This document shows, piece after piece, positions 29,474 to 60,460 of a stretch of 64,000 nucleotides of DNA. How positions within the stretch are numbered: position 1 is the stretch's first letter; every line of letters starts with the position of its first letter. The stretch comes from Labyrinthula sp. Ha (lineage: Eukaryota > Sar > Bigyra > Labyrinthulida > Labyrinthulaceae), in contig JAALGZ010000048.1 in NCBI GenBank assembly GCA_015227615.1, positions 1 to 64,000 on the forward strand. Direction: 5' to 3'. The translations under genes and the position numbers were made by a program. The notes beneath the pieces were generated by a model that was not told where the DNA came from, did not search any database, and worked only from the letters and a program-made list of their open reading frames with translations.

Positions 29474-31489
29474 TTTTCTTTGTGAAAATTTTTCACTTTC
29501 TAGCAGTGTATATTCCGAAAGTGGGATCAATGTCTAGCTTCATCGAAGATGATTATTTTGGGATGAAAGAAATAGAGGGAGATGTAAAACACACAAAGTA
29601 CTTAAGCAGTTCACTAAACCCCTGTATTATCATAACTGTACTCTATCTTCTGGTATTCACACACACATATACGTTTTAATTAGTTTATTCATAATAGCTT
29701 ATGAATAGTATTCTTTAGGAGATTACACGTTATGTAAGTTCAATTAATATAATATTTGTTTAATAACGAAGTAATTAAATACGGAGTAGCAGTTGACTAG
29801 TTTTATCGAAAAGTTATTTAGTGTATATAAAACTGGTCTGGGGTGTAAAAAAAGAAGGGAGACAAGATATAGTAATGCACAATTGTTTGCGCAGGTCGGT
29901 TTGAATTATTAAATATATATATATATTGTTTCTATATATTTATAATGTGTGTGTATTGAACTTGGTAATTTGGTTTTCCTATTCTATATATATAAAACAA
30001 GAACGATTTACGTAAAAAACTAAATTATTTTGCATATATTTTATAAGAAAACAGAATTTGTCATAAAGGATGAAAGAAAATATTATGTTCATACTCCTTT
30101 TTGATAAGTTTGACTTGATATCAATGAACATTCTTTGTTTTATATATAAAAAGTTAAAAGAAAAGTTTATCTGCAAAGGATAAACTATTGAATAGTTAGA
30201 TACACGAAAATGAGGAAGAGTTACTCAATAGAACTCTAGACACCTAAACTAAGATATATTAGATACTTATGATTTCAATCCAAAGTCTTTTATCTCAAAG
30301 AGATATTTTGAAGAACAGAAGAAACTCTTGAATACTTTCTAGAAGTGTAAAAATATGCTTAGGTTGTTATTACTTCAAATAATATTACTCGTATTATGTT
30401 TTGTTTTTATTACTTCATAATTTGCCGTTAGCTTTGCGCTTTTATTGTTGTTTTTTCTTGCATAATGTCGTAAGATTGGTTATGTCATATATTTCTCTTA
30501 ATACTATTCACTAATTCTACTCTATAAATTGATAATAATTCAATATTCGATAGCTGATTAAATGTACACAAAGCACGACTGCAACTACCTACCAAACGCA
30601 CGAATCCTAGGGACTGGGATCACTTCAATAGCATAAATAACCTACAAGAACGCTTAGACACGAGAGAAAAACAATTAAGCGACCTTATTTTAACAGCGCT
30701 ATTTCTTTCGAGCCTATAGCAAAACCTAGAGTGCACGAATCAACGTTTAAAGCAGCTTCTTGGAATGACTGTAGGCGTGCATGATCTAACTACAACTAAC
30801 CTTACTCTCTTTCCGCAGTAGCTATTTAAAACCAAGATCGGTTTAGCGCCAGAGTCGCGAAAAAAATGGTGAAGCGAACTGTGTAAAAACTTTGCATCTA
30901 CAAGTTCATGGTGTGTAGTCGTTATGGATCGATAACGAACGAAATCAAATTCTAGAAGTAATACCGCGATCATATGCTATCATTCCCCGAGACTATTAGG
31001 ATACTCGATTTCGAGGAAAATCGGAATGATCCAAACAAGTACCCAGCTCAAACGGACGGTACCCCAGAATCAGTTGATTAAGTCAGGTTTGAATTCAAAC
31101 CCATGCTCCACCTTCAAAAACTTTTACTGATAAATTTAGTAATAGAAATAGGTATTTTCGAATTGGTTTTTACTCATATTCAAGATTTGATTGGTTAATT
31201 TTAGCTCTTTCCGGGTATTTTTCAAAACCTGATTCGTACAGGATGAAAATTCGGCAAGAGATAGATCATTTGTCAATAATAAACTTTAGCCGAATGCCGA
31301 ATAGAAACACGAGCAACTGAAAAGTAAAGAAACATCTAAGTATTTTTACTCTGGCAAAAAGGGGAACTTGCGATAATTTAAAAAGTGGGTGTATCCCACG
31401 GTAGTTGATGAAGGTATTCATTTCTGTACTACTTTCCGAAACAAGAGGGGTAATAACGTACTCCTCCTAAGAGTTAGCTAGTGAAATCT

Positions 31490-32560
31490 CGTGTGATGAA
31501 ACTACAGCTCACAGGATCTTGAAAGAAGTTTTAGAAGATGTTGTAAGATATCAGTTGAAAGGATTAAGCTATTTGTCCCTTGTATGGGTTGAGCCAGAAA
31601 AGATACAAAATGATAACATAGCTTGCTTCAGTATAATGACTAAGACAAATCCTATTGAGTAAATGAGAAATTTTAACGTTAGCTGAATAAAGCTTTGAAA
31701 GAAGATTCTTAAATTTGGGTAAAATGGAAAATCAATATGGTAAGGAGAGTTAATTACCTAGTGCAGAGTCTTACTCTTAATAAGAACTATTTGGAACAAA
31801 TCCACGAGGAAAGTGTCCAGGATTAAAAGCAGCTACCTCATGCTGTGCTGTGTTTTAAGCATGAGAATGTTCATGTGGAATCGAATGAACCAAGCACGCC
31901 ACACACTTAGCCCCTATACAGCTAAGTACTCAACAATATATGTTCATGCATCAGAGCCCACAATAAAGCTGAAAACGTTCCCATTCCCACAGTCATGGTT
32001 CCTGAAAAGCTTCATTAACCTGTAACACTACACTATTAGAAAGCTCCTACCTCAGATCAGATACTATATTGCGAAAACTTATCCTGATAGTATCCCAACG
32101 TGCGGCTCACCATTAGAACAATTAGGAAGATGTGACAATACCAAGTTTATTACACTCCAGGATTGGTTATCTTGATTTGTCAGATACGATGGTCCCATTA
32201 TCCCAGTAATTCTTTTCACGATTTGGAAATCCTTAAACATTCAAAAAGACTCTGACACAGAAACACTAATATTTTATCAAGACCACCATTTTAAATGAGT
32301 TAGTTGTCTAAAAGTTGATGCTCTAGGCATAATCTGAACTGCATTATCAATCAAAGAATCTAGTCAGATTTCTTGGAACAATTCACCAATGCAGTGTCTA
32401 AGAATATCTGGTCAAGTTGATGCGGCTAAATTGGTAATATATTGTAACACAGAATTTGTCATAAAACATTATAATGCTATTAAAATCGTTAGATTGGACC
32501 AGATTTTGAGAAAATTAACTCATGTTGCTAAGAATACTCCTTAAATCAGACTTAAAAGTC
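31490..32560 (+). pseudogene. Decayed coding region, possibly a LINE-like remnant
   Basis: Successive open blocks on the plus strand in shifting frames read like protein: DETTAHRILKEVLEDVVRYQ near 31.5 kb; PDSIPTCGSPLEQLGRC near 32.1 kb; GPIIPVILFTIWKSLN near 32.2 kb; and a ~70-codon block with AAKLVIYCNTEFVIKHYN at 32.35-32.54 kb. The Cys-pair block followed by an IIxxxLFTIWKSLN-like helix recalls the region after the reverse transcriptase in plant-type LINEs, and the last block could be RNase-H-like. This is weak resemblance only, and no reverse-transcriptase core was found. It is certainly broken. Confidence 0.3.
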
Positions 32561-32570
32561 CACCAGTTCT

Positions 32571-32649
32571 AACGTTAGGAACTGAAGAAACGCAGTAGTA
32601 GCCAGTGTAACGTTAGGGTTTAGGAGAACGCGGGAGTAGTAGTTCACTA
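32571..32649. repeat. Imperfect two-copy tandem repeat, ~38 bp
   Basis: Copies start at 32571 and 32609, each with AACGTTAGG, then a GAA-ACGC core and AGTAGTAG. Similarity is about 70 percent by eye. More GC-rich than the surroundings; role unknown. Confidence 0.5.
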
Positions 32650-33967
32650 TAGCGTACCGATAAAGATTTGAAGTGTGACGATATCATATTTATAGATAAA
32701 GTAATTTGATTGATGGACAGAATTTGTCTTCACTATGTTGGATTAGGTCATAGTGAAAAATCCAATCAATCTTAATTAACAACTAAATAATAAAAGTGCA
32801 TAAGGAAAATTTGTCTAAGAACTTACGGGGGAGATTCACAGGATAAAGTTTTAGGCTTTACTCTGCAGTTGCTCGCTGTTCCGTGAGATTAAGGTAAGGC
32901 AAAATTTTTTGCCAAAGAATTTCCCCGTACTCTAAGGAGCTTTGCAGTCCCACAAATAAATCTACTGTGTTTATCTTATTCTGGTCTTCAAATAATCACA
33001 GTCACCCCAATTTCTCTAGATTATTAAACGAAAAGACCATCAAGATGGTGCCTCGCCTCTTAAAACAAAAAAAGCTTTAATTACTTTAAAATCTCTACTT
33101 CATAAAACTGCATAATTATTAATATCATTAGTTCTTGAACTTCGTTTAACTCTTCCAACTTAGATAATATCTACAATTCTAATAGTAATACAGTTTGTCC
33201 AATGACTATTTAACCTTTTTGTACCTTTTGCTTGTCTAGTTTGTCGCAAGGGCTTGTTCAATATGGTACAAGCTCTAATTCATGAAGCAAATGTTAATAC
33301 AGCAGGTCATCCGCTGTTTGACTATCATTGTAACATAGTAAAAAATGGAATATAATTAAACAGGTCTATGATATTAACTTATATCCTTTGCAATCTTTCA
33401 TTATTCGTTTTTCTTTTGACGGCAGCACTTATGGTACATGAGTTGTTTGGCGCAATGTTTTTCTTGAGTAATTCATACTGTTCTAAGAAAGCCTTGATAA
33501 AAATATCCAAGAACACCGTCGCATAGAGTTGAACTTGATAAGGAACACACGAACTACAATTGAAAGGTCTGCTCTGGTCGAAATCTAATGCCTTGTACAT
33601 TCTATCGAATATATATCTAGTTTCAAGCTCTATTGGCTTTCTCTAATAGGTATTAAATCTGAATTTAGCTTGAGACAGATAATGAACCATACCTAAATAC
33701 TGGGTGAGGATGGATATAAAAGTATTTTACACTTGATGAGAAATAAACTGAGCTCTGTACAATCGTCTTGAAGGTTTTCTGAACTATGGTACCCTGGTTT
33801 TAAAATCAAAGAAATTAAGACTGTTCTAAAATGAATATGGTTGATGGGAAATAAGATTATAATCAATTTCGGTAAATCAGAGTAGTTAACTCCATTTCTT
33901 TTCGGTAACAAATTGTCTATTTAGGTTAGCTATTAAAAATTGAATAAATCTCGCTTGTATATTTTAT

Positions 33968-34983
33968 CTATTTGAAATTACTTTCCTTCCTTAAGCTTAT
34001 ACAATATTTTCTTAAGAGGTTGGCAATACTCAGAACCTCTTTGTATTTTTGAATACCCGGATAAGCAGCCTTAGCAGCTAACCAGTCATTTTGATTTTCC
34101 TCAGTTAGGAAATGGATCCTTGAATTCTTTATGTCGCGTTGTAACGACAAATCGCTTTCATTTTTGTATGTGGAATAATTGCGTCCATCATTGTAGAGGT
34201 AGCTCAAACTGCTCCTCTTGGCAGTTCTTATCCCCCTTCCACACACACACACATACATACAAATTCTGGTTCTTGTTCGTAGTATTTTATTGTTCCGAAT
34301 CACTGGTGATCCATGCTTAAATAGAAGCATAGTGATCTTAAAATCATTCAATGTTTGCTACCGTCGTCAGAAATTTCTACCGAAAATTATATGATATATC
34401 TTTAGTTTTCATGTCGAAGCGCCATTTACCTACTAGTCCAGAGGTATCGCTTCATATTCTAAAATATATCATAAGAATTTTCAGCTATTTGAATCCAGTT
34501 AGAGTAGTACTGAGAGTATTCCCAAGCGCTTAGTCTAAGTCTGGTGTTATCATGAGTTTCATTTGAAGCTTTCGCACATGGTCCTTTATTTATTCTTAAA
34601 TTTTGATGATGCATGTTCTTTGAGCTTTGGCATGCCTTTTTGGTATTTCATAATGATGTTGTTACTACCTTCAAAACCAAGGAACTCAAATTTCATTTTT
34701 TTCTTTTGATGTATGATTTTTCCTGCTGAGCCAGTGAAATTATTGCAAATGGTAGTCTAACAATAGCTACATATGAGCCAAATATCAAAGGCGAACCCGG
34801 TTGTCTATAGAAAAATTCTATTTCAATAAAAATAATCAAAACCATTGCATCCACGGAAATACATTTACTAGAGTTTACCTGTTGCGAAAGCTTCATTGGG
34901 TCACAGGACAATTTCCCATGGGTTCCATTTGGGGTGACAAAAATAATTATTATATCTGGAAGCTCGACACTTGGCCATGTTTC
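33968..34983 (-). pseudogene. Cluster of coding-like blocks, broken gene or spliced gene of unknown family
   Basis: Three minus-strand blocks follow each other. One is at 34983-34693, about 96 codons (VELPDIIIIFVTPNGTHGK... to YIKRKK). One is near 34645-34475 (LRLSAWEYSQYYSNWIQIAE). One is at 34351-33968 (LTEENQNDWLAAKAAYPGIQ). Composition is protein-like throughout, but I found no splice pair joining them that fits the 28-nt style of this genome. No family recognised. Probably a decayed gene or mobile-element remnant. Confidence 0.3.
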
Positions 34984-37900
34984 TAAAATAATATTTTAGG
35001 TGTTACAGTTTAATTTGAACTCTAAAATTATTCGAGATATATCTAATTCCAACAAATTATCACCTTTATTGTTTTTTTGATAATAGCATTTGACTTTTGA
35101 TAAATTTCTTTTAACGGTACTCCTATTACAGCCTAAGGACGGAAATGTAGATGCGATACTGTATGAGTAGTGTGTAAACCAAACCTAATCCCACCAATTG
35201 TCACACATTACACAACACAAGAATAAGAATGATACCAAATAATAGGACTCGGTAGTTGTTCTAGACATATTGTAAGTCTTCTACAACATAAAATCTTTAC
35301 CAAACTGATAAATTCAAATCATTCGGTATCACTCAACTACTAATAATTGATTTGAACTCAGTTTTGATCTATTTTTATGCCCATAAAATATCTTAATAAC
35401 ACATAAATTTCACTGTTTCTTTATAACTAACAATTTAAAAAGGCATTGCGGATATCACTAAGTTTATATTTGAGCTATGGGTAACTTTATAATTGCTCAT
35501 TGGCGAGATTATACTCTAGCTCCTGAATTCCGCAGCGCAAGCCATACAAATCCCAGATATTATTAAATCTTGGGTTAAACTTTGTAGTTTCACTCAAATG
35601 TTTTATTGTCAATTCTTGAACACAGACAACTGAAAAGCTGACTATGTAGTATGATGCTCAATGAGCTGGGGGAACACTTCACCGTTTACAGTACAGATAT
35701 CCTGTAGTTCACTCAGTAGATTGCCCAATCAAATTTCTGGTTGCATAAAAAATCAGATAATGTTAATCTCACGGTGGGTTTTATTTCTAAATCTATTAAA
35801 CTACGTTACGGAAATTGAAAACGAGAATTCTTTCTTGCATATTCTTCTTTTTTTGAGACAATTAATGTTTTCTCATAATATGAATTTAAACGACGGAACA
35901 AAGAATTTTTTTAGTGTAAGCACTAGGTGAACACGCATATACATACGTTCACGAGTATATTGGGCAACTCATGACCCGTTTATATTTTCCTACTTGACAA
36001 AAAATTTAACCCTTGTGCTACGATATTAAGTGCCAACAATATCTACTTACCAATTGGGGTTCTTCTAAGAAATCCAGTTCAGAGTGGAAAAGTTAAAGGT
36101 TTTAATTTGTTATCGTAATCATTACTGAAAACCTGGTTACTTTAATTCTTCACAGTATGTATATAGTAGGTATTGATTATATTTTCTCGCTATCTTCAAA
36201 CTGTAACAACAGTTAATGATAGTTGGTTTTGATGAAAAGATAAATGATATATTCTCATAAAGTATTGAGAGGCGGAGATTTAAACCAATTTACGAAAATT
36301 AAAAAAATGTCCGTACTAAAATTTTAGTAAACTAGGAATTCAAAGGAGAGACCGCCAACTACAGTCAAAATATAAGATCCGTGAAAATGCAAAGAACACG
36401 AAAAATTTTACAATGCTAAGGAAAGTCCATTGGTCAATACTTATCCACTACATATTTTAATTTACTGTTTTACCCCACAACCAGTTGCCGGATTTTCCCT
36501 TTAGCGCCTTATTCGCGAACTTTTTCTATGGCGATCCACTTACCGATTGATGTCTGAGAAAATTCTCCCGATCTATCTGTATGAATAATACCAAATCTTA
36601 AATTTTTGATGGTTTCTATATTTCCATATTGCTTGAAAGCTCTTTCACCTAAGAGGTGTTATATTCTTTAGCAAAACGAAGTAGTATTCAATAAATATGT
36701 CACAATAAACACAGACTTTATATTAGAAAATGTAGATAACTTCCAACGTAGAATATTATTATAGAGCTCTTTATCCTTGTTCATTATCTTCTGGGTATTG
36801 CCTTAAGTAAAATATATGCGATGATATCAAAAACTGAAAGATTTCTTAGAATAAGATTTACATAGTTCGGAGTTTTTATGTTTCTATGCGAAGGTTAGTG
36901 CAACTGCTCTGAACTGAGGTATACTTTAATAGTCTATCAAGTAAGTTAATTCTTGGGGAGTTAGAGTTTATGAAAATTAAATTATCTATTGATTCGTACT
37001 TAACGATATTGCATTTGAATATATGTTTTTAAAAAGAAGTAATCCCAGTTAAAGTGACCCTTAACTATGATAATCTAAGTCTTACAAATCCCACATCTGT
37101 CCAATATTCTAGCCCGGTAGACAATTAAAAAACTTTTCAATTTAAAAAAGATGACAGAACACAGAGTTTCGTTTGAGGCAGGGTTTAGAATGAAAACAAC
37201 CAAATACCATATGCATAATTTTCAGCAAACATAGTTTTCATAGTTTATGAAGCTTCTTCCTTACAAAAACTTATATAATAACGGCTAAAGTATTTTTTTG
37301 CGACAAATTGTTATCCTCCTTGATGAGTCGAGAGTCTCGAGCAGGTTATATGGCAATTATGCGGGATTTAAAAAAATACCGATTTAGTTATTACCACTTA
37401 GTAATAATGAAAAGACAACAAAATGAGTTCTGTGAATACCCACACGTCAAATATTCTAGCTACCTTTAAATATTTCTACAAGTTCCTTAACTTATATAGA
37501 TACATCTTCTCTAGCCCATATGGGATATGAATACGGATATTTCTAGTTATTTTCTGCCAAGCATGGTTTTATTATTGGAAAGTTGTTGTTATAATTTATG
37601 TACTGAAATCTACTTAGTACATTTTTTATGAACCATTTTTTACTCCGAAAGATTGTATGGAAAATGTAAATGCAAGTTCAAGGTAATTCACCCAAAATAC
37701 AGGATAGGAAAGAAACATTAGAAATGAAAATATTCCAGAATTCCCGAATACGACCAATGCAAAAAGACAATAATAGACTAATTTTTCTAAGAATTCGACT
37801 TATGGCCGGTAAACGGCTTGTACATTCAAATTAGACGAATCTAACTGAATGAACTGGTCCTTTGAAGTACATAAATGTTTTAGGAAGTATCATTGGTAAG

Positions 37901-38362
37901 TTCAAGTCTACAATTATTCCAAAGAAAGAAAATGTGCTAAAGTATACTGACTTCGACTCTTTAAGCCTTTCTTAATTTGCAATTTTTATAGAAAAGCCAT
38001 ATATTCGCAGTTCAAAACTATTTGTTGTAGGATTAGCACTAATATTCTAGTTTTTTTAACTTCTATATTGAAACTGCTGTAACACAAGTTTAAAATAACA
38101 GATAGCAATATTATATCTTGTTAGCTCTTAGAAAATTAAGAAATCTCTGTAATGGTATACCTTTGGTATCTTAAAACAAAATTTGAACCTGTGGTATAGC
38201 ATGATAATCCTTAGAATATGGATGCTCCTCAAGTATATTTCGATCTAAAGATAAAAAACAATGAGATCAGCATGGGAAGCGAAGTTGGAATAGAATTTTG
38301 ACGTTTAGGGAAAACAGTCGGAAATGTTTGCCTAATAACAGCCCTCCAGTTAACGCATGATT

Positions 38363-38458
38363 AGGGATCGTATTTGATTCATTGTTGATTCATCAATAAG
38401 TTTTTACCCATATTCTTCATTTTGATTAATTTCTATATTTTCACAAAAGTCTTTCTTG
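38363..38458. repeat. Truncated second copy of the neighbouring element's left end
   Basis: ATTTGATT...ATTCATCAATAAG and the following A/T-rich tract at 38372-38455 repeat the sequence at 38477-38560 with an offset of about 105 bp. It looks like a partial copy of the MITE candidate lying directly before the full one. Confidence 0.4.
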
Positions 38459-38468
38459 ATTAAGGAGT

Positions 38469-38810
38469 GGGGGTGGGATTTGATTTACTAATAATTCATC
38501 AATAAGAAAATTTTCCATTTCTTTTTTATTAATTGATTCTGATAATTCCTAAATCATTTTGAGCCATAGTTGAATGTGAAGTGATAATTAATAATAGAGG
38601 GAGCCCCAAGGCCCTAGGATAATGGAAAATCTTTCGTTTTGTGCTGTATGAAACCCCGTAAGAAATGATGAAGTAGCCCAATCTTGAATTGATAATCAAT
38701 TGAAAATCAAAATCATTTGCTAAAAATTAAGATTCCAATTCTTGTAATGATAATTAAAATCTATCTAATTTTTAAATAATTACTGATAATTTTTATCCGG
38801 TCCCACCACT
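38469..38810. mobile_element. Non-autonomous DNA transposon (MITE), Mutator-like candidate
   Basis: A 342-bp non-coding, TAAT-rich element flanked by perfect 10-bp direct repeats ATTAAGGAGT at 38459-38468 and 38811-38820. Its ends are imperfect inverted repeats: GGGGGTGGGATTTGAT on the left and, reverse-complemented, AGTGGTGGGACCGGAT on the right (11 of 16 match). Target duplications of 9-11 bp are typical of Mutator-like elements. No transposase inside. The family call is inference from duplication length. Confidence 0.5.
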
Positions 38811-39709
38811 ATTAAGGAGTATTCTTGAGCTTTTTTAATATGATTTTTACCATGACTTTGGGCAAGATTATTAACATTTAGCTAATTGTTTTTTACATTG
38901 GTTAAACTGGTTCAGTAAATGGACCCCGTGACAGATAACAAAATGATATCGAATCATTTTCTGACTAAATGGACCATTTCAGTAAACTTCTAATACATTC
39001 AAGAGCCCTAATGAATTTATTTGGACCATTGTACCCAGTTTCCTAAGAAGAATCCCCAAAATTAAGAAAATAAAGAAAAAGTTTGATGAAAATAGAAATC
39101 CAAATCTCTTTATTGTTAGATTTAACATAATAGTATTAGGTTCAACTTAAGATTGGTGAATCTTAGGGTTCTCAACCAAGACTCTCTGGTTATTTATAAT
39201 ACGTTAAGTCATTCTTTGACTTTCATGTTACTCTCGAATAAGCTAGTTTCATTTCAAAATGTACCAAAAATATGGAATTCTTGACCTATATTAGGAGTTT
39301 AAGGAGCTGGATACCGACTTTTCTACCGCTGGTGTCTTATTTTTGGAATTCATTTAAGTCCCTTTTTTCTTGATATTATACATGGGTATTTAGGAATAGT
39401 AACTTAATTTTTCAGCTATAGATGGATCAATGGAGAGAAAGCCTTAACATCTTGAATAATAGTTAGATTGCACAGAAGTAAGCAAAAGCTTTAATTACCA
39501 AGGTAACAGTTGTTACATTTTAATATCCTTGTGAGCTTTACTTGGAAAAGTATTCTACTCTTGCTTAGTACCCCATGGTGCTAGTTACCACACTATAAGA
39601 ATTTAGTCTTGTTTGAGCTCTAGAGAAGGGGTATTGCTTTTTTAAAGACTCTTTTAAATTTCGCACTAACCTTTTAAGGTTGTAGCATCTCTGTAGTTTC
39701 TCGTGAATA

Positions 39710-40582: not shown

Positions 40583-43247
40583 CTAAGATAAGTTTATTTC
40601 TTTCCCAGATTGCTTCGATGATGCAGCGCCAATCGAAGATTCACCTCCGCCCATCTTGTCAAAATGCTCATGAAACCCTCTTTCTACCGGCGGATTGCTC
40701 TTGTTTAACTTGAACAGAAAATAGATGTTTAAACCAACGAGAGCAAACAACAACAACGAAATAAATACACCCCAACCTCGTCTTAAGTACTCATCTGCTC
40801 CAAGAACTTCATCCTCAACGGCATCCAAACGATCAATACATTCTCCAAGGGCTAATTCACTTTCAATAGCTGTTTCTCTTAATTCTTCTACACTGTTTCT
40901 TAACCAATGCCCCTGCACCCCAAAATCAAAGTTCAAGGAAAAAGGATCTGCGGTACCGTCCCGATCAAACTCAGGTTGAGCAACGACAATGCTCTCTATA
41001 CCTTCTATGATATTCTCGGCTATGTCGGTAGGAATGGTAGAATAACCCAAGTCAGCTGCAACCTCAGCACCTTCATTATACAAATAAAGAGCAAGCTGTT
41101 TTACTAGGTTACCAGAATCTCCCATTGGAGTCATGTCCTTTCTCATAAGCAGGTAACTTATGGATGACATAGGCCAACCATCAAACTCCTCATTGGCTTC
41201 TGTAGGGGTAATAACAACTTCAGACATGTCTCCGAAGATAATACTTGAATCTGGCCAATTAGCGTCTTCCACAGCGGCCTGTGTTGCTTCAACGTATTGT
41301 TCTTGGGTTCCAATACTCATGAACTGATTTCCCCAAGCCAAATAGACAGGAACCAAATCTGTACTTGAAGCCTGTTCATAGTTTGAGTAACCTATTGTGT
41401 TTGAGTTCGCAAGAAGAGTGTCAATCATGTCACTGGCACTAGAAACATCAAGCGTACATTGTGCGCACTCAAATTCATGTTCTCTATTTGCTTCCGCATC
41501 CCAATCATCGGAATATAAACTTAGGAAATTAGTAATATGCCAGGTAAAGTCACTGGGATCAGCGCGAAAAAGAGGCCTTACTCTGTTGTTGTTTGTTCTA
41601 GCCCATTCAATATTGTTCCTTTGACTACTTGGAACAATATCCTTCATATCTTGATACAAATCTCCCCAAGATACTCTTGAATTACTTGTATATAATCTTG
41701 TTAACATATTAGCATCCAAAGCAACAATGTCATCTATAATAAAAAATTAAAAAGATAATACTTTCTCCAAGGTTTGGTATATTTGCATAGAAACCAACCG
41801 CACCAAGTAAAATAGGGATTTGAGCAATGTCAACATCGTGTTTAACCATTTCTTCAAACTGCTCTGTGTTAAGAGGGCTGTCAAGTGCTGTAAAATGAGT
41901 TTGGGGTTGCCAACCTGTCCAATCACTACCTAATAACTCTCTCTGCCCTCTGCTTGCTCCACCGGCTCTGTAAGTAGCCCTAAGAGGCAGTTTTGAAGCA
42001 ATCTCAAAAGAGTGCAATACATTAAGCAAGAAGGTTTGCGGGCCCGTAGAACCAGAACCATGCATATGAAGGACACCAGGTGAAGCAAAATCCAGAGATC
42101 TGTCTACCACTTTGTGGTAGACAGTTGTATCCTCATAATTAAAAACATAATTTGGTGCAATTGAGTTGCTAACTGGATCCCCAAGTGCAAACTGTTTTTC
42201 TGCAGAGAATAAGATTGAGCTCTTAGTAGAGAGAGCAACAATAGAAGGATAAACAAAAGGTGGCATTTCAAAAATGACATGGAAGCCAGCAGGATTCATC
42301 AAATCAAGATATTCAACATAACCAATTTTCTGTATATCTTCTTCTGCATCATAGACTGCTGCACAGTTTGAGAAAACAAAAAGTTTATCATTCAACACTA
42401 CTACCGATGAATATAGTCTGCCATTGTTCAAGTTTTCAAATTCTTTATACTGACCAGTCTCTATGTCAAACACTATTGTTGCAGTACTATAGCTGGAAGG
42501 AGAATCTGTTAAACCAACAATAAATGCTTGGTGATTCCACACTGCAACACTTGCTCCAATTGCACTTCTTCCTAGGTTATAGGTTCGAACAAAAGAAAGA
42601 GTTTCTGAAACAGCATTGTACTCATACTTGTGAATCTCTGAGGTACCAACAAAGTTATTAGAATCTGTGCTTCCAAGCCCAATGAATAAATATCCATCTT
42701 CAAAGAAGGCAATTGGATCATACAGACCTTCATAAGAATCAGTAGGATCTAAAGTTACATCATTCAAGGAATTGTCACGAGCATCAAAGAAAACTATTCC
42801 AGCTGGCTCGCTATCTTCATCAATTCCACCAATAAGGAGATATTGAGAAGTTCCTGGGACTTTTACAGCGGCATGACGATATCTTCCAACTGAATCTATA
42901 GTATCAAAAGAATCCTCAGAGATATCATACACACCAACATTCGAATTTATGCTGCTGCATTTCTGAAATGCCTCTAGTCTACCCGCTTCAGTTTCTGCGT
43001 TTCCTGAAGTACTCGAGCAGCCTCCAAAGTAATACACTTTATTCTTTCCATCGAACACTGCCTTCGCACCAATCAATTTCAAACCGTCATTTCCAAAAGT
43101 TTCGAAAAGATATCCAGTGTCGTAAGACTGTTGCTGCCCTTCCTCAGCAGTCTCTTCACTTGGGTTTTTTGCCAACCTTAGCTCCAATGGCACTTGAGCT
43201 AGAGCAGAACCCAAGATAGAAATAGCAACAACAAATTCAATTTTCAT
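40583..43247 (-). CDS. Secreted kelch propeller fused to PstS-like phosphate-binding domain, single-pass receptor type
   Basis: Two exons (43247-41762 and 41733-40583) joined across a 28-nt intron; the sum, 2637 nt, is an exact number of codons (878 residues). Signal peptide at 1-17 (SALAQ). Residues ~45-350 form kelch-type blades, e.g. KVYYFGGC...VGVYD and YRHAAVKVP...YLLIGGI. Next is a type-2 periplasmic-binding-protein domain of the PstS class: LHMHGSGSTGP near its start, RAGGASRGQREL, then IPILLGAVGFYANIPNLGEN, LTRLYTSNSRVSWGDLY and a later SSISYLLMRKD. The intron falls inside this domain, right after NLGE. One membrane helix (GVFISLLLFALVGLNIYFLF) precedes a tail of ~40 residues. PstS captures phosphate in bacteria; here an outward-facing phosphate or ligand sensor or scavenger is inferred. 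I do not recall this domain combination from known families. Confidence 0.85.
41734..41761 (-). other. 28-nt spliceosomal intron in the kelch/PstS gene
   Basis: Begins GTATTATC, ends TTATTATAG. Removal fuses NLGE to NDIVALDAN in frame across a conserved PstS-like core; without it the frame ends after a few codons. Confidence 0.9.
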
Positions 43248-51174: not shown

Positions 51175-52185
51175 ATGAAACAAAAATTTATCATCCTGTG
51201 GATCCTTTTGATTACGTAATTTTATATTTTGTATGTTAAACATAGAATCTTTTTTTATTTGGTTCTTTCTATAGTAGAAGCTATATATTCAAAGCCAGTA
51301 TCATATTCAACAAACGTCCTTAAAGAAACAGATGCTTTCAAAGACATAAGCTGTTCTGTCAACAAAACTTTTATTCCTGCGGGTGTAAATTTTAAATCAA
51401 TTGCAATTTCTTCTTATCCTGGATCTGGAAATACATTTTATAGAATTTTGTTGGAAGAAGTTTTTGGTATTTATTCTGGAAGTTTATACTTTGATAACAC
51501 TTTATCTTCAACTTTTCCTGGTGAAAAGAAATCTTCAAATGTTATTTTTGTTAAAACACATTTTCCTTGTAAAAACTGTTGGAATAAAACCAAAAATGGA
51601 AAAAAAATTCCAATAAGTGAGAATGAATCTGGAAGAATAACAAAGAAAAAATATGCAGCTGTTCTTCAACTAATAAGAAATCCTTTTCGAACATTTCTTG
51701 CAGAATTTCAAAGAAAATATTTAAAATTTAAGGTCAAAGAAGATGGATCACATATTAATCAAGTGGATTGGAATCGTTTTGATGCTTTTAGAGCTGAGTT
51801 TAAATCTGAATTCAACTCGTTTATTGAGAGATGGAGTTATCATACAAGATATTATGCATTAAGTGAGTTCAAAGTGTTTTCTATTTATTTTGAAGACTTA
51901 ATTGATAAACAAAACAGACAAAAATTAATTCAGGAAGTTATTAAATTTACTTTTAATAACTTACCACAGTTAACTCAGTTAATTAGCGAAGTTGAAACTT
52001 TAAGTTGTGTTGAAGAAAGATTAAATTCTTCAAGGTTAGAACTTTTTCATAGAAAAAAGAAAAATTTTGGAGTATCTCTATTTTCAAAAGATATGATTAA
52101 ATCTTCTTGCAATTATTTTAAAAGTCTTGGAGTTTGGAATCATAAACATTGGGGAGAATGTGAAAATACAAATATTATTATCTAA
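51175..52185 (+). CDS. WSCD-type P-loop sulfotransferase, Golgi membrane-anchored
   Basis: 326 residues from two exons split by a 30-nt intron (51216-51245). Splicing links the ATG at 51175 to the main frame and gives a signal-anchor MKQKFIILWILLIT joined to IFFYLVLSIV; without it there is no ATG start. The lumenal domain carries the PAPS-binding SSYPGSGNT (5'-phosphosulfate loop, residues 69-77), then GIYSGSLYFD and VIFVKTHFPC, the same order as in WSCD1/2-like sulfotransferases. LQLIRNPFRTFLAEFQRKY is the 3'-phosphate-binding region. YFEDLIDK and the C-terminal Cys/Trp motifs (WNHKHWGEC) also fit. Transfers sulfate from PAPS to glycans or similar acceptors; the acceptor is unknown. Several NxS/T sites support a secretory location. 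Confidence 0.9.
51216..51245 (+). other. 30-nt spliceosomal intron in the sulfotransferase gene
   Basis: Starts GTAATTTT and ends AAACATAG. Removal creates an ATG-initiated signal anchor in frame with the catalytic domain. Confidence 0.75.
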
Positions 52186-52763
52186 AATCTTCAGGGTAAT
52201 ATAAAAACATTCGTTCGGAGATAAATAAAGCTTATTCAATTTACCAAATTTCTTCACATATTTTTCTTTTCTATAGATTTTAAGACTGTAATTTCTGTGT
52301 AGTTTTTTATTGGAATATTCTCAATGTATATTTTAAAGAAGAAAATAAAAACTCTGTTGTCGTAAATCAAGAACATTGGTGCGTTGTTGAATCTTAAAGT
52401 GTTAACTATATAGGAGGTTTTTCAAAGGTTAAGAATAACAAAAAAATAGGTTCTTTTTTATGATTTCATATAGCTCAGTGGTTCGGCTAAATTTATTTGC
52501 AAAAAAGTTTGTTTCATTTTGAACACTTGATTTTATGTTCCTTTCTTTAACATTTCAAAGAAAATATCTACTATATAATAAAACTTGTTCTTTTCAAAAC
52601 ATGATGAAATTAGCTTTTTATCACTGAAAACTTTTGTACACCTAGAAATCTCTCTATGAAATAAAAGTTTTAAGTTTCAAAACTCTCATCTTCCTTTAGA
52701 CTGAAATGTTAATATTTATATTTTATACTTACAAAATAAGATAATAAAGTATTTAAGTTAGGT

Positions 52764-53500
52764 TTAAAGAATTATACAGCATGATTTTTTTGACTTAGAA
52801 TACCTGTTTTGAAATCCTAATACTAAAGCTTTGCGCACAGCTTCAGTGATTCCAACATTTTGAAAAGAAGAACAAGACATATAAGCAGCTATCTTGTATT
52901 TTCTCTTCAAGTTCATTGCTTCTATCATAATTTTATCTCTTTCATTTTCATCTGATGCTAAATCATATTTCATACCTAGCAATATAAACTTTGGCATTGT
53001 TTCCTCATTAAAATTGTTCATAATTTCTGGAATCCAGAATTTATCAACACTAAAGAGAGTTTCAATATTATCAAGAGAAAAAGAAAGAAGAATACCTAAA
53101 TATAAAATATAAAAAAAAATACAGTTAGTATCAGGGTAACTTAAAGCTCTTAATTCTTGAAATCCTTCTGGTACTATGCCTCAAAAGAAAAACAAGGTTA
53201 CCTGTAGAGTCCCATAGATCTAAACCTACACGAAAACCGTTCAAACAGTAAATCCTATGAACGTAATCATCTAAAACATGAAAATATAAAAATTATACGA
53301 TGCGTAGGATAATAATATTTCCACTTTGAGTTTTTTTGATAGTTTTCGTCATGGAATACTTCTAAGAACGTTGTCTACTTAATACAAGAACAAAACAAAC
53401 TTTCCCAATATATCGATCACCTAAATTCATACTTAATACCAAAGAGGAAAATACCGATTAAGATAATCTTGACTTTATACACGTCTTCATTATTTATCAT
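52764..53500 (-). CDS. Divergent Rho-like small GTPase 1 (six exons, five tiny introns)
   Basis: Exons 53500-53455, 53420-53401, 53374-53299, 53270-53202, 53173-53123 and 53095-52764; introns of 34, 26, 28, 28 and 27 nt. Total 594 nt, 197 residues. Order of motifs: P-loop GDRYIGKTT after KVKIILI, switch I region YYPTHHDY, switch II LWDSTVPEGFQELRALSYPD, ILLSFSLDN, base-recognition LGMKYD (N/TKxD-like), SCSS for the SAK loop, and a polybasic KSKK tail ending CIIL, a CaaX box whose Leu predicts geranylgeranylation. SYPD plus the insert and CaaX mark the Rho family. In switch II, DTAGQE has become DSTVPE, so the conserved Gly60 and catalytic Gln61 are replaced. It probably binds nucleotide but hydrolyses poorly. 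Membrane-associated regulator of actin or polarity by family; actual role unknown. Confidence 0.85.
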
Positions 53501-56500
53501 TTATATCTGTTTTTCTACTAAACAAGTTTTTATACAAGTTTATTTACAATTCTTGTTGTTTACTTAAGATTTAAATGGGCCATCTGGCCTAACCTATCGT
53601 ATGAGTGTCACTCTAATTACTATGCTATGTACATATTCAAGAGAAAAGTTCTATGGCAATATAATATTTCTTCTATCTGACTAGAATAAAATTCCATGGA
53701 ACTTTTGATCTCTAGAATACGGAATTTCATGATTTCCCAAAATTAATTTAGACAGAAATAAAACTTCAATCTTTTTTTAGATTATAAAGATTTATTCAAA
53801 AGGTTACAATTGAAGAGTTATGTGGGTTCAAGAATACTAACTGATGGTCCAAGTTCACTATTTAGGTTAATGCGCCATCTTCAAGCTCATTTTCTGCTTT
53901 CTAGTTCCCTGCTTTATGTTGTTCTTTCTTGTTGGGGGGAATGAAATTAATAAGCAATGTACATACATAATGCTTCAATGAAAGATTTTTGCAAGGGGTG
54001 TGAGTTCTGTATAAATTCTTGTGTGACTCATAAACTGGCTAAGCATTGAATAAAAAGTTCACGTTAGGCCATGGTTTCAAAGGAAGATTTTGAGTTAATA
54101 GAAATTGTTTTGAACAACTTAATTTATAAGCTGATTCCAGTATAATAAATGTTCGTGATCTACAGAAACTAGGTTTTTCCATCTTATATATATGTTCTTC
54201 ATAATGGACGTTATCTTAGACGATCTTTGATGACTCTAAATTTAAGCCTTGTTTAGCTTGATTTCTATGTTCAATGAAAGAAAAAGTGGAAAAAATATAT
54301 TAAAAGTTTTCGAGTCCTTCGAGCAACAACTGTGACTTAATTGTTTAAAACTATGATATGATTACAGTTCAGGATAAACATATTGCGCCCTACTTGTTAG
54401 ATTTGCGTCATTGTTTAGTAAACTAAGGTAATTGCACGCGACCACCATCAACCGACAGAGGGAAAGAATTCTAGCTCCTGTCAAATACCAGCTCCGAATA
54501 TGATATATGAAAACAACTATATTTTAGTCACAATAAGAACCTTCAGTAAATAGATATATACCAATTTTTTGCAAACCATCCTATCATAATTCCATTAGTG
54601 TTGTAAAGGGTGCATTATTCCTATATTTCTGCTCTTTGTTCTAACTTAGATCTAAGTGTACTTCTTAAGTATTATTTATTAGTTAATTTCGCTTTTTCAG
54701 TAAGTTTCCAACTTTTAATAATAATGGTTTTACGGGATGATTTCATTTCATACTTAATATTTGTTTTTTTTCTCTCCCTTTTCAGTATAATATTCTTGAT
54801 TGAGACTTGATATTGTATATTGGCCAATAGTTATCACAACATATTTCTATATAGAAAATTTATCGGAGTTGAGTAAAAAGATTGGCAGGTTGAGCTATAG
54901 TTCTATCCCTGGTCACGGAAAGTATTTAGCAAAAATATATTAAGTAGTAGGTCTAAAATCTAGGTGATCCTTAGTTAATATTGATACGTATCGTAGTAAC
55001 TAGTTGTATCACTTCACAACCTAACCTCTGAAAGATGTAGTCGACGAATTAAAAGTATTTAGAGTCTTCTAGAAGAAATGAAGAATCGGCTTAAGACCTA
55101 AGTAAATCAGCAAAAAAATAAACAGCTTTAGTAAGGGAGTTAGCTTCTAGATTATATTGCCTATCTAAAACAATAGTTAATTAAATGCACAAGTAACAGC
55201 AAATTAGTTAGATATCTCGACTCATATCATAAAATTGTAATTCTCATAGTAAGCTGAAGGAACTTTACTTTTTTTACTCTGCAGGTGATGCTAGAAAATC
55301 TATCTAAATGAACTAGCACAAAGCCCACCATACAAAAATAACTTTCAATGACTCTAATAACCTAAGAATACTTAGTGAAATACAACCCTGGATTTTTTAT
55401 AATATCTAACTATATTTATTGCGCTCAACTATTAACATAACCTATACAATCACGAACATTTATTCCATGTGAGAGCCATTGTTCTCTGCTCTAGTGTCTT
55501 TTTTCTTAATATTGTATTTACTTCTTACTAGCCACCATGAGAAGGTCAAGCTTGAGCTAACTGTTGAGATGTCATTCAAGAAAATAAATAAATAGAAAGG
55601 AACAATTATAATTTAACAAATTCTACTTTGGTTAATACTTTGAAACACCATCATGAACGCAGTGCATTCTCGGGCACTAAAATATTATCAATGCCGATAA
55701 TTACCTTACCAGACTAGTTGAAATTATCATAGGAAATAATGAATTCACAAAGAATATATACTACCATTTTGCTGTATCTATTATCTTGAAAAATACCTTA
55801 AGACAACCCACTAATATGTTTTCAATTCATTTTATTTTGAATACCTCAATCATTTATCAGCTGTTATCTAACCAGTGGAGCCATGATTACGAATTTCATT
55901 TAAATTCCTGGAGGAACAATTGAAGATGATATTTAATAGCATTCATTACATTGTCTAATTTATCTTTTAATGCATTCAAAATACCCTGATATGGTCCTTC
56001 ATGTTATTTACTCTTCTCTCTTATCTATTAGCTCTAATTTGCACATTTATGTGGGTCCGCTAATAAATTTTAGCGTGTCATTTTAAAGTAGTAACTTTTT
56101 TTACTGTGTTTATAAACTAACATGATCTTAATTGCCTCCTAATTATGTCCATTCTAGTTACTCATATACTTAGGTCTCAAGCAGTTTGGTATTTTTATGC
56201 ACAATTCTAAGCTCTATTTTAGTTTTTGATTGTTAAAACTCTATTTTCCGAATAGCGCAAAAGAGGACTAATATATCCCAACAAAATCACGGGCAACCTA
56301 ATTGCCTAGCTAACTATTTATACTTTTTTGTTCAAGAATCCCATATCTATAGGATGATTGAGTTTCCTTTCGTACAAATACATATTTATATGTAAAGCAG
56401 ATTGGTTATGTCAACTCATATGGACAACTATCTCTATATAAAGCATATTGGTTATATCAAGCAATAAAATAGACGATATTATTTACTTTCATATGATTAA

Positions 56501-57559
56501 GAATAAGAAAATATATTTTAGGTATTGCATACAATAATTTAATTAACTAGTTTCTTGTTTCTATCATGGGTTATAGAACTATCATATTTATCTCTTAGGA
56601 ACTATATGTCAAATAATAATGACAGAGATATTTTTCTATCTACAAGTACCCTTATTTCCATTTATACACATCTTCATCAAATCCAACACAGATTAAGTTT
56701 CAGAGAAGGCTTAATAAGGTATCAATAATTTAATAAGTTCAAGTTTGGTTAATTTACGCAAAACGATACGTGTTTATATGATCAAAACTTAGGATTATCC
56801 ATGAATAAATTTTTGTCTTCAACTTCACTTACGTTGATTTAACGCATTCAGTTAACCATCGGGTAAAAAGAGGGTCAATCCCTAAGTTATATATAGATAT
56901 GTCAACCTGGCAAATAAATACTAATACTATAAATGAATATAGTTTTTAAGCGCAGTTTAGGTTAGTACCTTGATTTTCCAATGCACAATCACTTTCTTTT
57001 CTGTATATAGCAATACTACTATCCCTAGTTACTATAAGAAACTTAACTAAATTTTTGCAGCCCTGACTTCTACATGAATAACACAAATTGCCCAGATAGC
57101 TACCTAGTTTTTCTTAGAATATAAGGCATCTGTTCTTCAGTACATTCATAACTAGAATAGTGTAAGTGGAAATACACACTCCAAGCGAAGAATCCATAAA
57201 TAGTGGTGGAAATAAAATCAGTTATACGGCAATAACTTTTTACTGCTTCTGTTTGCAGTCTGAAGTATCTCTGAATTTATTGTTCTTTACCAGCTAGCAC
57301 ATCCCAAGTTTAAAAACAGAAACACCAATTTCAATACATTTATTCAAAATAAAAGCGCTGTTTTGCTTTTAAACCAAAAAAATATATATGAAACAGTTTT
57401 AAACAAGATGGAGTTATTAATTATATGTTACAAAAACTCCGTATATGAGTCTTGATTTGTTATTTGTTCGTTTTGTAAATAAGAATGTTGCACAAATTTA
57501 ATGCTTTAGGTGGTTGAGATATCCAAGAAAATTAGGATAATTCACTAAAGCTTTTAAGT
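53501..57559. other. Gene-poor spacer between the two Rho-like genes
   Basis: 4 kb of AT-rich DNA. A plus-strand block at about 53770-53945 reads as protein in two overlapping frames but is short and lacks recognisable motifs. An open stretch at 54610-54810 is hydrophobic and probably chance. No third GTPase copy was seen. Confidence 0.45.
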
Positions 57560-58315
57560 TTAAAGAATATTACAAAAATATCTATTTTCGTTACCATATT
57601 TTGCTTCAACCCCAGCCGCAATTGCTTTATTGACAATATCTTTTATCCCTTTGTCTTGAAAAGAAGAACATGTATGTTCATAAACTGCTTTAAATTTTCT
57701 TTTTAACCCAATCGCCTTAGCTCTAATTTCATCTGAATCATTATCCGCAGAAACTAAATCTGATTTCATACCAAGAAAGATGAAACAGGGCATTCTCTCA
57801 TTTTTGAAAAAGTTCTGTATTCTTGATATCCAAATATCTTCGACAGCAGTTATTGAATGTTTATCATCCAAAGCATAGCAAAAAAATACAACTATGTAAA
57901 AATAAAATAGAAAAAACCATCTGTGTCAGGATAGCTAAGTTCATTGACTTTAGGCTGGGTAACGTCACCTATAAATGAGTTTGCGAAAACATATACCATC
58001 CATAGGCCATAAATCAACATGAACTGTATTCCCTTTATATGAACTTCTGAACGTATAATTTGAAAATGCTAGAAATAAGTTATGAAAAATCACAACTTTT
58101 TGGTTTATACTTCCTATGGTATGGGTTTACATAAAATGGGTTTGCATGATCTGGGTTCCTGAAAGCGTCTACGAATGTTTGCTACAGTCTATTCAACATC
58201 AAACTTAACCTTTCCAACTTTAGCATTTCCTAATATATAAAATAATTAGATAGTGAATATGGAAAATATTACCTGCGAGAAGTATTTTTAAGTAATATAT
58301 TTGCTCTTCTTGCAT
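57560..58315 (-). CDS. Divergent Rho-like small GTPase 2 (six exons, five tiny introns)
   Basis: Exons 58315-58273, 58229-58210, 58181-58097, 58068-57997, 57968-57918 and 57891-57560; introns of 43, 28, 28, 28 and 26 nt. Total 603 nt, 200 residues. Exons 2, 5 and 6 have exactly the same lengths as in Rho-like gene 1 (20, 51, 332 nt), and all five intron positions coincide. Motifs: P-loop GNAKVGKQT (the Mg-binding Ser/Thr is Gln), switch I KPKTFSNY, switch II LWPMDGDVTQPKVNELSYPD (Asp57 and Gln61 both replaced), VVFFCYAL, LGMKSD, TCSSF, and a CNIL CaaX end. Loss of Mg and catalytic residues points to a pseudo-GTPase. Duplicated from or with gene 1, 4 kb away, then diverged strongly. Confidence 0.83.
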
Positions 58316-58826
58316 TTTCTTGCGTTTTCAATTTGACAAAAATAATGTTCCAGAAATCTATACGATACAAATATTGATGAAATTTGAATAATATAAATTA
58401 TTATTATTATTATAATAGTTTGTGAAAGATAAAGAGTAAATAAAATATTCTTTATATATTTAAAAATAAAAATAAAATAGGTTATCTCAAATAATATTGC
58501 ACGTTTTTTTGCTTCACTACTTTCTTTTACCTGTAAATGCATCTCTATGGGGTAGAAAAAACCTTCTCTTTCTTGTTTGACTACTGTTGATTTTTAAAAT
58601 GCAAGAAGAAAAGAACTTGTTTGGATTGAGATTAACACCATATAATTAAAACCAGAGTTGGAGATATTGTTTAACGCATTACTAATGGGAAGATAAATGA
58701 CAATAGCAACTATTAGTTTATTCTTCAACATGTGGTAGAAACAAAAACATAATAGTTCCTATTCTAAAAAAACCTATTCAGGAATCTTTAAAAAATATCT
58801 CATATCTTCATGACTTTTCATACACT

Positions 58827-59886
58827 TCAATCTTCTGTCCTAGAAACCAAAAGGAAGCCAAATATAATAAAAAGTGCTCCTATATAGTTTCCTAAAGTAT
58901 GTTCAGCATTTCTAAAACCTAGCAAAATAAGTTCTACTATATATCCAGTTGGAACTATTAATACTTGACCTGTTGACATAAATATACTGCTGCTCACACT
59001 AATACCAAAAAATAAACTTAGGCTATAAATTACTTCGAAAAAAGAAAACAAAAACATCATATTTAAATTTTTGCCTTCTGGAAAGTGAAATTCCTCTTCC
59101 ACTTGTAACAAACTGGAGACAATATAGATTCCAACCCAAAAGAATAAAATATTATAAACACCAGCTAAAGTAAATACAACTAGAGTCAACACACCTTTTA
59201 AGCTTTCACCTTTTTCTCCTATTTCAACTTTTCTATTGTCTTCACTATCCGTTGAGAGTGGTTGAAACTCTGAGCCGTCAAAAAAATTTTTGAGAAAATA
59301 ATTTGAAAAAAATTCAAACATAACTTCAAAACAAGAAAGAAGCAGAGCAGAAAGTAAAACGAGAATATATCCAACTGGAGTTGAGGATTGAACGGAGCCA
59401 TCAGGATTTGTTTCAGATTTTGTATACACTGAGACTAAAAGGACGCCAAAGAAGCACACTGATAATCCCAGTATCTTTTTTTTTGTGGGTTCTTTTTTAA
59501 GAAAGATGATTGAAAAGATAAAAACCCAAAGAGGAACTGTTTGGTATATTGCATTATTTGCTGAAAGAATCGTCAACGGTAAGGAGTAATACCAGAATGC
59601 AGAGGCTAACACTGACAATAACCCACCTAGAAAGGAGATGAAATGAACCAAAGGAATAAAAAAGATCTTCTTTATATCATAGTTTACTCTTCTTTGCATA
59701 AGAAAAAGCGGAATACTAAATTAAACACGAGAAAAAGCAATACGCTGATAAGATATAGCAACTTCGAACAAACCAGGCGATAAAGAATGGATGTGGGTAC
59801 TCTTCAGTCAAATTTTGACCTAATAGACCCATGCTTTCCCAGCTAACAATCGTTAAACCCAATGCCAAATTGCTTATTTGTTTCAT
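58827..59886 (-). CDS. SLC35-type (DMT superfamily) transporter, one 28-nt intron
   Basis: Two exons, 59886-59744 and 59715-58827, sum 1032 nt, 343 residues. The first exon supplies MKQISNLALGLTIVSWESMG and HPFFIAWFVRSCYIL, the missing first helix and the start of the second; the join continues as SAIPLFLMQRRVN. About ten hydrophobic helices follow, with the DMT hallmark ANNAIYQTVPLWVFIFSIIFLKKE and a second-half counterpart around SSSIFMSTGQVLIVPTGYIVE. Resembles SLC35F/DMT proteins of the Golgi, vacuole or plasma membrane, which move nucleotide sugars, thiamine or unknown solutes; the substrate is not predictable. A cytosolic loop (FDGSEFQPLSTDSEDNRK) separates the halves. Next gene upstream, same strand, ends about 90 bp away. 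Confidence 0.88.
59716..59743 (-). other. 28-nt spliceosomal intron in the SLC35-type gene
   Basis: Starts GTATTGC, ends GTTTAATTTAG. Removal joins YILSA to IPLFLMQRR in frame and restores the N-terminal helices of the transporter. Confidence 0.9.
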
Positions 59887-59975
59887 TTCTACTTTTTCTT
59901 TATTTTGGGAAATAGCCGTTAAGAGTTAGTTGAGCCGTTAAAAGCAAAGGAGAAAGAAGTAAAAAGAGTTAAAAT

Positions 59976-60460
59976 TAGGTAGACTGCGTGAGAGCTATAA
60001 TATGACCATCTGGAGACCTGAGAACAGCTGAAGTCGAAGAAAGGTTGTGCTGTATTGGTCCATCCAAGTTTGCACCTAGAAATGATAGAAGAATTAACAT
60101 ACCTTGCTGTATGGCTTGTGGTATGATTTCGTTTATGTTTTCAACATCAAAGCTAATAAAAGGAGAATATCCAACTGATGCTTCACTCTCTCTAAAATAA
60201 CAGGAAGAGTTTGGAAAATTTGCCTTTCGATTTTCTTCAATATCAAAGAAATGCCGGTTGGATCCGAATGGTTTAGTTGGAGTTTAGCCTATGATGAAGT
60301 AAACATGCCCAAAGAGATACAATTTTATCGCTTACTGTTTGAACCGGTATATTGAGCAAACCATTGTAGAACTTGATGCCTAGAAAAATTAAATATATTA
60401 ACTTATTCTACTGGTTTCTATATCTCGAACCAACAAAACTAACCGATTCAACCGAGCCAT
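59976..60460 (-). CDS. Glyoxalase/VOC-superfamily protein in five small exons
   Basis: Exons about 60460-60412, 60379-60321, 60288-60224, 60191-60103 and 60075-59976 give ~120 residues; introns 32, 32, 32 and 27 nt. The product is a two-module vicinal-oxygen-chelate fold: MARLNRLVLLVRDIETSIKF then YNGLLNIPV (module 1 start), AKLQLNHSDPTGISLILKK, then GYSPFISFDVENINEIIPQA, GANLDGPIQHN and VLRSPDGHIIAL. The GYSP...F.V.DIN...GA.LDGPI...DGH order matches the plant-type glyoxalase-I family protein group. Third intron begins GC rather than GT, the only such case here; the second has an alternative donor 15 nt upstream. Probable small-molecule isomerase or detoxifier; the metal-binding set cannot be judged. 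The stop position carries a one-base uncertainty. Confidence 0.75.

What the first reader, a model, noticed from the sequence alone, without database searches (positions are those of the whole stretch)
51216..60411. Nuclear introns of ~28 nt, among the shortest known
Seventeen introns in six genes (kelch/PstS, sulfotransferase, two Rho-like GTPases, SLC35-type, VOC) were located by joining conserved protein blocks in frame. Lengths are 26, 26, 27, 27, 28 (seven times), 30, 32 (three times), 34 and 43 nt. Every one keeps frame and restores a motif. Introns this short are known from Paramecium, Stentor, Blastocystis and chlorarachniophyte nucleomorphs. Here the stops are standard and intergenic DNA is long, so none of those fits well. 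No room is left for a usual branch-site spacing, which implies a specialised spliceosome or intron-definition rule.
Basis: partly seen in the sequence, partly recalled or inferred. Interest (0 to 1): 0.85.

Follow-up and report, generated by a model that had tools for sequence, protein, structure and literature searches.

The report
Very short introns, matching U6 change
The roughly 28-letter interruptions in these protist genes are real introns, among the shortest known, and the small RNA (U6) that helps read where introns start carries an unusual one-letter change that seems to fit their altered start signal.

Summary
Three hand-spliced proteins are 100% identical to published EukProt gene models: kelch/PstS (878 aa), RhoB (200 aa) and, from another contig, UPF1 (1016 aa). 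The class is genome-wide: of 45 motif-verified introns, 44 are 26-34 nt, median 29; longer introns show no excess over controls. UPF1 groups the genome (50.8 Mb) with labyrinthulomycetes. The size is known nearby: Blastocystis, also Bigyra, has a mode of 30 nt. Branch-site room is not missing: an A lies 7-9 nt from the 3' end in 41 of 45. U1 and U2 recognition sequences are canonical. The surprise is the only U6 gene found: its ACAGAGA box reads AUAGAGA, and A is enriched at 5' splice-site position +5 (19 of 44, p = 2e-4) while G is at background (6 of 44). That U6 and 5' splice sites changed together is inference; I saw no RNA reads.

The parts
40583..43247 (-). kelch/PstS-like gene, 878 aa, one intron
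   Evidence: spliced protein identical to EukProt P0001 over 878/878
41734..41761 (-). intron, 28 nt, GT-AG
51216..51245 (+). intron, 30 nt, GT-AG
   Evidence: frame and signal-peptide-like start only
52764..53500 (-). RhoA: Ras-family GTPase, five introns
   Evidence: PF00071 74.8 bits spliced, 29.1 for the longest unspliced frame
53421..53454 (-). RhoA intron 1, 34 nt
   Evidence: joins VYKVKIILIG to DRYIGKTTF
53375..53400 (-). RhoA intron 2, 26 nt
   Evidence: restores GKTTF
53271..53298 (-). RhoA intron 3, 28 nt
53174..53201 (-). RhoA intron 4, 28 nt
53096..53122 (-). RhoA intron 5, 27 nt, multiple of three without in-frame stop
   Evidence: restores YPDTNCILLSFS
57560..58315 (-). RhoB: Ras-family GTPase, five introns
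   Evidence: spliced protein identical to EukProt P0002 over 200/200
58230..58272 (-). RhoB intron 1, 43 nt
58182..58209 (-). RhoB intron 2, 28 nt (contains an earlier, unused TAG)
58069..58096 (-). RhoB intron 3, 28 nt
57969..57996 (-). RhoB intron 4, 28 nt
57892..57917 (-). RhoB intron 5, 26 nt
58827..59886 (-). SLC35/EamA-type transporter gene, one intron
   Evidence: PF00892 40.6 bits spliced, 34.7 unspliced
59716..59743 (-). intron, 28 nt
59975..60460 (-). VOC/glyoxalase-like gene, four introns
   Evidence: PF00903 35.6 bits spliced, none unspliced
60380..60411 (-). VOC intron 1, 32 nt
60289..60320 (-). VOC intron 2, 32 nt (or 47 nt from an upstream GT)
   Evidence: both keep the frame
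60192..60223 (-). VOC intron 3, 32 nt, GC-AG
60076..60102 (-). VOC intron 4, 27 nt, multiple of three without in-frame stop

Best explanation
These are U2-type spliceosomal introns of one narrow size class (26-34 nt, median 29) in an AT-rich, apparently intron-poor, 51-Mb nuclear genome of a labyrinthulomycete-like stramenopile. Shown: exact agreement of splicing with published models for 8 introns in three genes, recurrence across the genome, T-rich bodies, a UAG end, an A 7-9 nt from that end, canonical U1 and U2 recognition sequences, and a U6 box changed from ACAGAGA to AUAGAGA. Inferred: the positioned A is the branch point, so the lariat loop is about 20 nt and the 3' splice site is the UAG just after it. 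Inferred: U1 and U5 hold the exon end and GUA, then the site is handed to U6, where U of the changed box can pair with +5 A; U6 and the 5' splice sites changed together from the canonical GUAAGU pairing.
For: Identity to EukProt models over 878/878, 200/200 and 1016/1016 aa; the first two carry 1 in the MAKER field that, as I recall, is the fraction of splice sites confirmed by transcripts. Size peak for GT..AG and not for controls. 45 verified introns, 44 at 26-34 nt, TAG end 42 of 45, A at -7 to -9 in 41 of 45; 40 of 44 against 20.5 expected, p = 6e-10. U1, U2, U4 and U6 found. U6 alignment shows C to U in the box; only one U6 by DNA search; its pairing with U4 through stem I and a diverged stem II suggests it works. 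+5 A 19 of 44, p = 2e-4 over intron-body level; 25 of 44 sites can pair with U at +5, 6 with C.
Against: No reads seen by me; UPF1's model has no transcript support. The verified introns were picked by eye as GT..AG stretches that restore a motif, mostly in Ras, kinesin and kinase genes; in 22 of 40 targeted loci I settled none. Five of 20 exon-gap estimates are 55 nt or more, so longer introns may exist. No branch-site sequence motif beat shuffled introns. +5 is U or C in 19 of 44, only 6 of 44 have the full GUAUAU, and +5 G is at background, not depleted. The U6 change is one base in one assembly. U5 was not found.
Confidence: 0.8

Rival explanations
1. The introns and size class are as described, but the U6 base change is unrelated: a sequencing error or a neutral change. 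The lost +5 G merely reflects relaxed, AU-rich 5' splice sites read mainly through U1 and U5.
For: +5 U is nearly as common as A (16 and 19 of 44), only 6 of 44 sites are GUAUAU, the exon side is fairly strong (-1 G 28 of 44, -2 A 24 of 44), and n is small.
Against: +5 A exceeds the intron body (p = 2e-4) while +5 T falls below it (p = 0.004) in T-rich introns; U6 is otherwise well conserved around the box.
Confidence: 0.4
2. A reduced spliceosome with lost factors (U5, Prp18 and others) is what forces the introns to be short, as the first reader's 'specialised spliceosome' suggests.
For: U5 and Prp18 were not detected and Slu7 is weak.
Against: The U5 and Prp18 searches rang in no control genome, so they do not show absence; U1, U2, U4, U6 and Slu7 are present.
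Confidence: 0.12
3. The stretches are assembly indels, pseudogene damage or retained coding sequence, not introns.
For: Two of the 17 are multiples of three without a stop, so those could be coding by frame alone.
Against: Identity of spliced proteins to published models, GT-AG ends with uniform anatomy, controls.
Confidence: 0.02

Closest known systems
Blastocystis introns (Bigyra, Opalozoa; PMC5608401, passages read)
   Same: Uniform short GT-AG introns with a mode of 30 nt; same class Bigyra; rare GC-AG introns
   Different: Blastocystis is intron-rich (85-95% of genes) in a 13-19 Mb genome and has U12-type introns; here most matched genes seem intronless, the genome is 51 Mb, and U12-type introns were not looked for. 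Blastocystis U6 was not compared.
Paramecium introns (PMC12862383, passages read)
   Same: Median about 24-25 nt, AU-rich, GT-AG, U2-type
   Different: Ciliate; over 80% of P. bursaria genes have introns; that paper notes SMU1 and RBM17, which I did not search for here
Stentor 15-16 nt introns (PMC9505925, outline and first third of the results read)
   Same: Branch A at a fixed distance without strong consensus; canonical U1 ACUUACCU and U2 GUAGUA; low intron density (18% of genes)
   Different: Half the length, branch A about 5 nt from the 3' end rather than 7-9; all five snRNAs reported similar to other eukaryotes, whereas U6 here has a changed box
Mikrocytid 16-17 nt introns (PMC10245619, passages read)
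   Same: Narrow size class in a genome with much non-coding DNA
   Different: 16-17 nt, highly conserved intron sequence, spliceosome reduced to 17-19 proteins with U2, U4 and U6 identified; here U1 is present and the sequence is loose
Two 5' splice-site classes and the U6 ACAGA box (PMC11732430, passages read)
   Same: AG//GU sites lean on U5 loop 1 and sites with +5 G lean on U6; here -1 G is common and +5 G is rare
   Different: That work treats sites that vary against a constant ACAGA box and its methylation; here the box itself differs

Membership tests
U2-type spliceosomal introns | GT-AG (rarely GC-AG) ends | tested here: met
   44 GT-AG and 1 GC-AG of 45, but GT..AG was partly a selection rule; controls with other dinucleotides give no such peak
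U2-type spliceosomal introns | U1, U2, U4, U5 and U6 snRNAs in the genome | tested here: inconclusive
   U1 (66.2 bits, under the 69.5 cut-off), U2, U4, U6 found; U5 not found, and the search has no positive control
U2-type spliceosomal introns | U1 5' end and U2 branch-recognition sequence conserved | tested here: met
   AUACUUACCUG and GUGUAGUA
U2-type spliceosomal introns | U6 ACAGAGA box | tested here: not met
   AUAGAGA in the only U6 found; the rest of the conserved core is intact, so the filing rests on the other features
U2-type spliceosomal introns | Branch adenosine upstream of the 3' splice site | tested here: inconclusive
   A at -7 to -9 in 41 of 45; position only, no lariat data, no motif above shuffles
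Ultra-short intron genomes | Genome-wide intron mode under about 35 nt | tested here: met
   44 of 45 verified at 26-34 nt; 12 of 20 exon gaps at 28-31 nt, five at 55 or more; from samples, not the whole genome
Blastocystis-type gene structure | Introns in most genes | tested here: not met
   121 of 132 kinase and 32 of 35 DEAD matches have no stop inside, which under-counts introns that cut a match; 16 of 46 predicted genes in 20 sampled stretches hold a short intron, part of them false (24 introns against 9-13 in controls)
Ciliate short introns | Ciliate ancestry | tested here: not met
   UPF1 falls with labyrinthulomycetes; one gene, no ciliate in the tree
Labyrinthulomycetes | Groups with known members in a tree | tested here: met
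   UPF1 with Mucochytrium and Hondaea, SH-aLRT 98 and 100, but a long branch (1.37), 32 of the 120 listed rows, quick method

The most novel reading that the evidence does not exclude
In this lineage the core reading of the 5' splice site has been rewired. [quoted passage not shown]
Probability: 0.45. Interest if true: 0.75.

Novelty: new variant of a known kind. Interest (0 to 1): 0.55.

Why it matters
It adds an apparently intron-poor, non-ciliate nuclear genome to the few with introns under 30 nt, and together with Blastocystis suggests that the size class may be wider in Bigyra. If the U6/+5 link holds, it is a natural test of the view that U6 makes the final choice of the 5' splice site (PMC11732430, passages read), and it shows that a base of the ACAGAGA box can change when the introns follow. 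It is also a warning for annotation: a minimum intron length above 30 nt would break these genes.

Tried and rejected
Tried without result: the eukaryotic SSU rRNA family in the own genome did not complete, so taxonomy rests on UPF1. U5 and Prp18 gave nothing, nor did their controls, so no absence is claimed. A motif search for a branch-site consensus did not beat shuffled introns. The Rfam scan at gathering score and the tRNA scan of the window were empty. Gene finding on coding signal alone misplaces many boundaries (24 of 53 calls at 61-300 nt, like the controls), so exact introns were settled by restored protein motifs.

Rejected: nucleomorph or organelle origin (a 50.8-Mb genome with contigs up to 3.3 Mb); a ciliate-type code (genes end at standard stops and match models read by the standard code); random indels (identity to published models).

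Not settled: the organism's name; EukProt rows show a MAKER label without species. Searches for a report of such introns in labyrinthulomycetes and for a U6 AUAGAGA box (one search listed 10 of 12 papers, by title microRNA, EST and cancer work) showed none by title and abstract. I did not open most of those papers, and most subscription journals are not in that library.
Full report
WHAT WAS CHECKED. I read the region and its frames and re-derived the introns from the DNA. One (kelch/PstS) lies outside the stated span, one is GC-AG, and one VOC intron could also be 47 nt. The sulfotransferase intron rests on frame and a signal-peptide-like start; that protein has no Pfam match.

INDEPENDENT CHECK OF SPLICING. 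Spliced kelch/PstS has a single database hit, a EukProt two-exon model identical over 878 of 878 residues. Spliced RhoB (introns 43, 28, 28, 28, 26) is identical over 200 of 200 to a EukProt six-exon model. In both, the second field of the MAKER quality string is 1, which as I recall means all splice sites confirmed by transcript alignment; I saw no reads. UPF1 from another contig (locus L027, introns 32 and 31) is identical over 1016 of 1016 to a SNAP model whose transcript fields are 0. These three genes hold 8 introns, 6 of them in the window; the other 11 window introns have no such check. Splicing lifts Pfam scores: Ras 74.8 against 29.1 bits (RhoA), 42.5 against none (RhoB), glyoxalase 35.6 against none, EamA 40.6 against 34.7.

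GENOME-WIDE. The window is C97:1-64000 of a 50.84-Mb genome in 153 contigs. An exon/intron search that lets introns be 12-400 nt at equal cost, on the window and 20 sampled 10-kb stretches, gave 29 GT..AG introns, 13 at 24-34 nt; TG..GA gave 30, 1 in that range. With a stronger coding model and eight more loci: 13 of 52 at 20-40 nt against 1-6 for five controls, and 39 at 41-400 nt against 39-51, so longer introns do not stand out. Capped at 60 nt: 27 of 37 at 24-34 nt against 5-13 for seven controls; at a lower intron cost 31 of 49 against 8-22, where the GT..TA control matched GT..AG in total score. In 40 loci chosen because domain matches were broken, adjacent or held stops, plus one METTL16-family gene: 21 of 53 at 24-34 nt against 0-8 for four controls. 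From the search rows alone, 12 of 20 exon gaps come to 28-31 nt, three to 19-37 and five to 55 or more; two of those five (both 55) turned out to hold 31-nt introns (L015, L046), the other three (68, 72, 103) were not resolved.

ANATOMY. 45 verified introns, 17 in the window and 28 in 24 other loci (18 of the 40 targeted ones; in 22 I settled none): 44 are 26-34 nt and one is 43, median 29. Bodies are 56% T. The end is TAG in 42 of 45. +3 is A in 36; +4 T 22, A 13; +5 A 19, T 17, G 6, C 3; +6 T 26. Exon -1 is G in 28 and -2 A in 24 of 44. An A lies at -7, -8 or -9 in 41 of 45; in the first 44, 40 against 20.5 expected (p = 6e-10), none in excess at -6 or -10, a weak excess at -13 (p = 0.03), and no wider motif above shuffles. 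By the frames that a coding model prefers, 27 of 44 are phase 1, 8 are multiples of three, and 42 of 44 would bring a stop or a frameshift if retained. Introns seem few: 121 of 132 kinase and 32 of 35 DEAD matches hold no stop, though an intron can also just cut a match short; in 20 sampled stretches 16 of 46 predicted genes hold a short intron, with 24 introns against 9-13 in controls.

MACHINERY. U2 (3 copies), U1 (3, at 66.2 bits, under the cut-off of 69.5), U4 (3) and one U6 were found. U1 starts AUACUUACCUG and U2 has GUGUAGUA, as in the Rfam consensus. U6 differs from that consensus by C to U in ACAGAGA, and a DNA search found no second copy. U4 and U6 fold together through stem I and a stem II diverged on both sides, so this U6 is probably the working gene. 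A METTL16-family match (a family shared with bacteria, which also rang in controls) and a weak but over-cut-off Slu7 are present. Prp18 and U5 were not found, without a positive control. SF1 and U2AF were not searched.

HOW IT MOST LIKELY WORKS. Shown: size class, ends, positioned A, canonical U1 and U2 sites, altered U6. Inferred: U1 and U5 hold the exon end and GUA; the site passes to U6, whose box AUA can pair with U at +4, A at +5 and U at +6; U2 takes the A about 20 nt downstream; the UAG after it is the 3' site. 25 of 44 sites can pair with U at +5 (A or G) and 6 with C, yet only 6 of 44 are the full GUAUAU. +5 A is enriched (19 of 44, p = 2e-4), +5 G is at background and +5 T is depleted. 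Final choice of the 5' site at U6 is argued in PMC11732430 (passages), which is why the change matters. That the two changes belong together is my inference.

WHO IT IS AND WHAT IS NEW. UPF1 places the genome with Mucochytrium and Hondaea (SH-aLRT 98 and 100; 32 of the 120 listed rows; long branch). Mucochytrium is in Bigyra, the class of Blastocystis, whose intron mode is 30 nt. The size alone is thus a new member of a known kind; the U6/+5 pair is what makes it a variant. Neither showed in my searches for this group, in a library that lacks most subscription journals.

Noticed in passing
L032:1501-1609 minus (G000:C46:223545-223653): The only U6 snRNA gene found has AUAGAGA in place of ACAGAGA.
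   Followed up: yes
G000:C96:200293-222920 and C135:72694-77477 (L009-L011, L033-L035): U4, U1 and U3 genes lie within about 1.3 kb of each other with U2 a few kb on; the set occurs twice in opposite orientation on C96 and once on C135.
   Followed up: partly
G000: C2, C72, C107, C71 and others (rows): Many copies of open frames of about 600-650 aa with a weak Ras-type GTPase match, crowded on a few contigs; nature unknown.
   Followed up: no
window 10837-11646, 16050-16781, 25787-26527 (+): Three similar proteins with a signal-like start, a short Cys-rich part, a Ser/Thr/Pro-rich stalk and a membrane segment (by eye).
   Followed up: no
window about 53500-57550 and 29600-39500: Long stretches with few open frames of 100 aa or more: intergenic DNA is long although introns are minimal.
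   Followed up: no
P0003 (EukProt snap_masked-scaffold_48-processed-gene-0.14): A further Rho-like paralogue labelled with the same scaffold, 77% identical to RhoB over 73% of it, predicted without evidence (AED 1.00).
   Followed up: no
L008 (G000:C41, around 8299-8808): GC 24.7%, against 31-38% in the other loci listed in that call; small contig or foreign DNA not checked.
   Followed up: no
   Followed up: no
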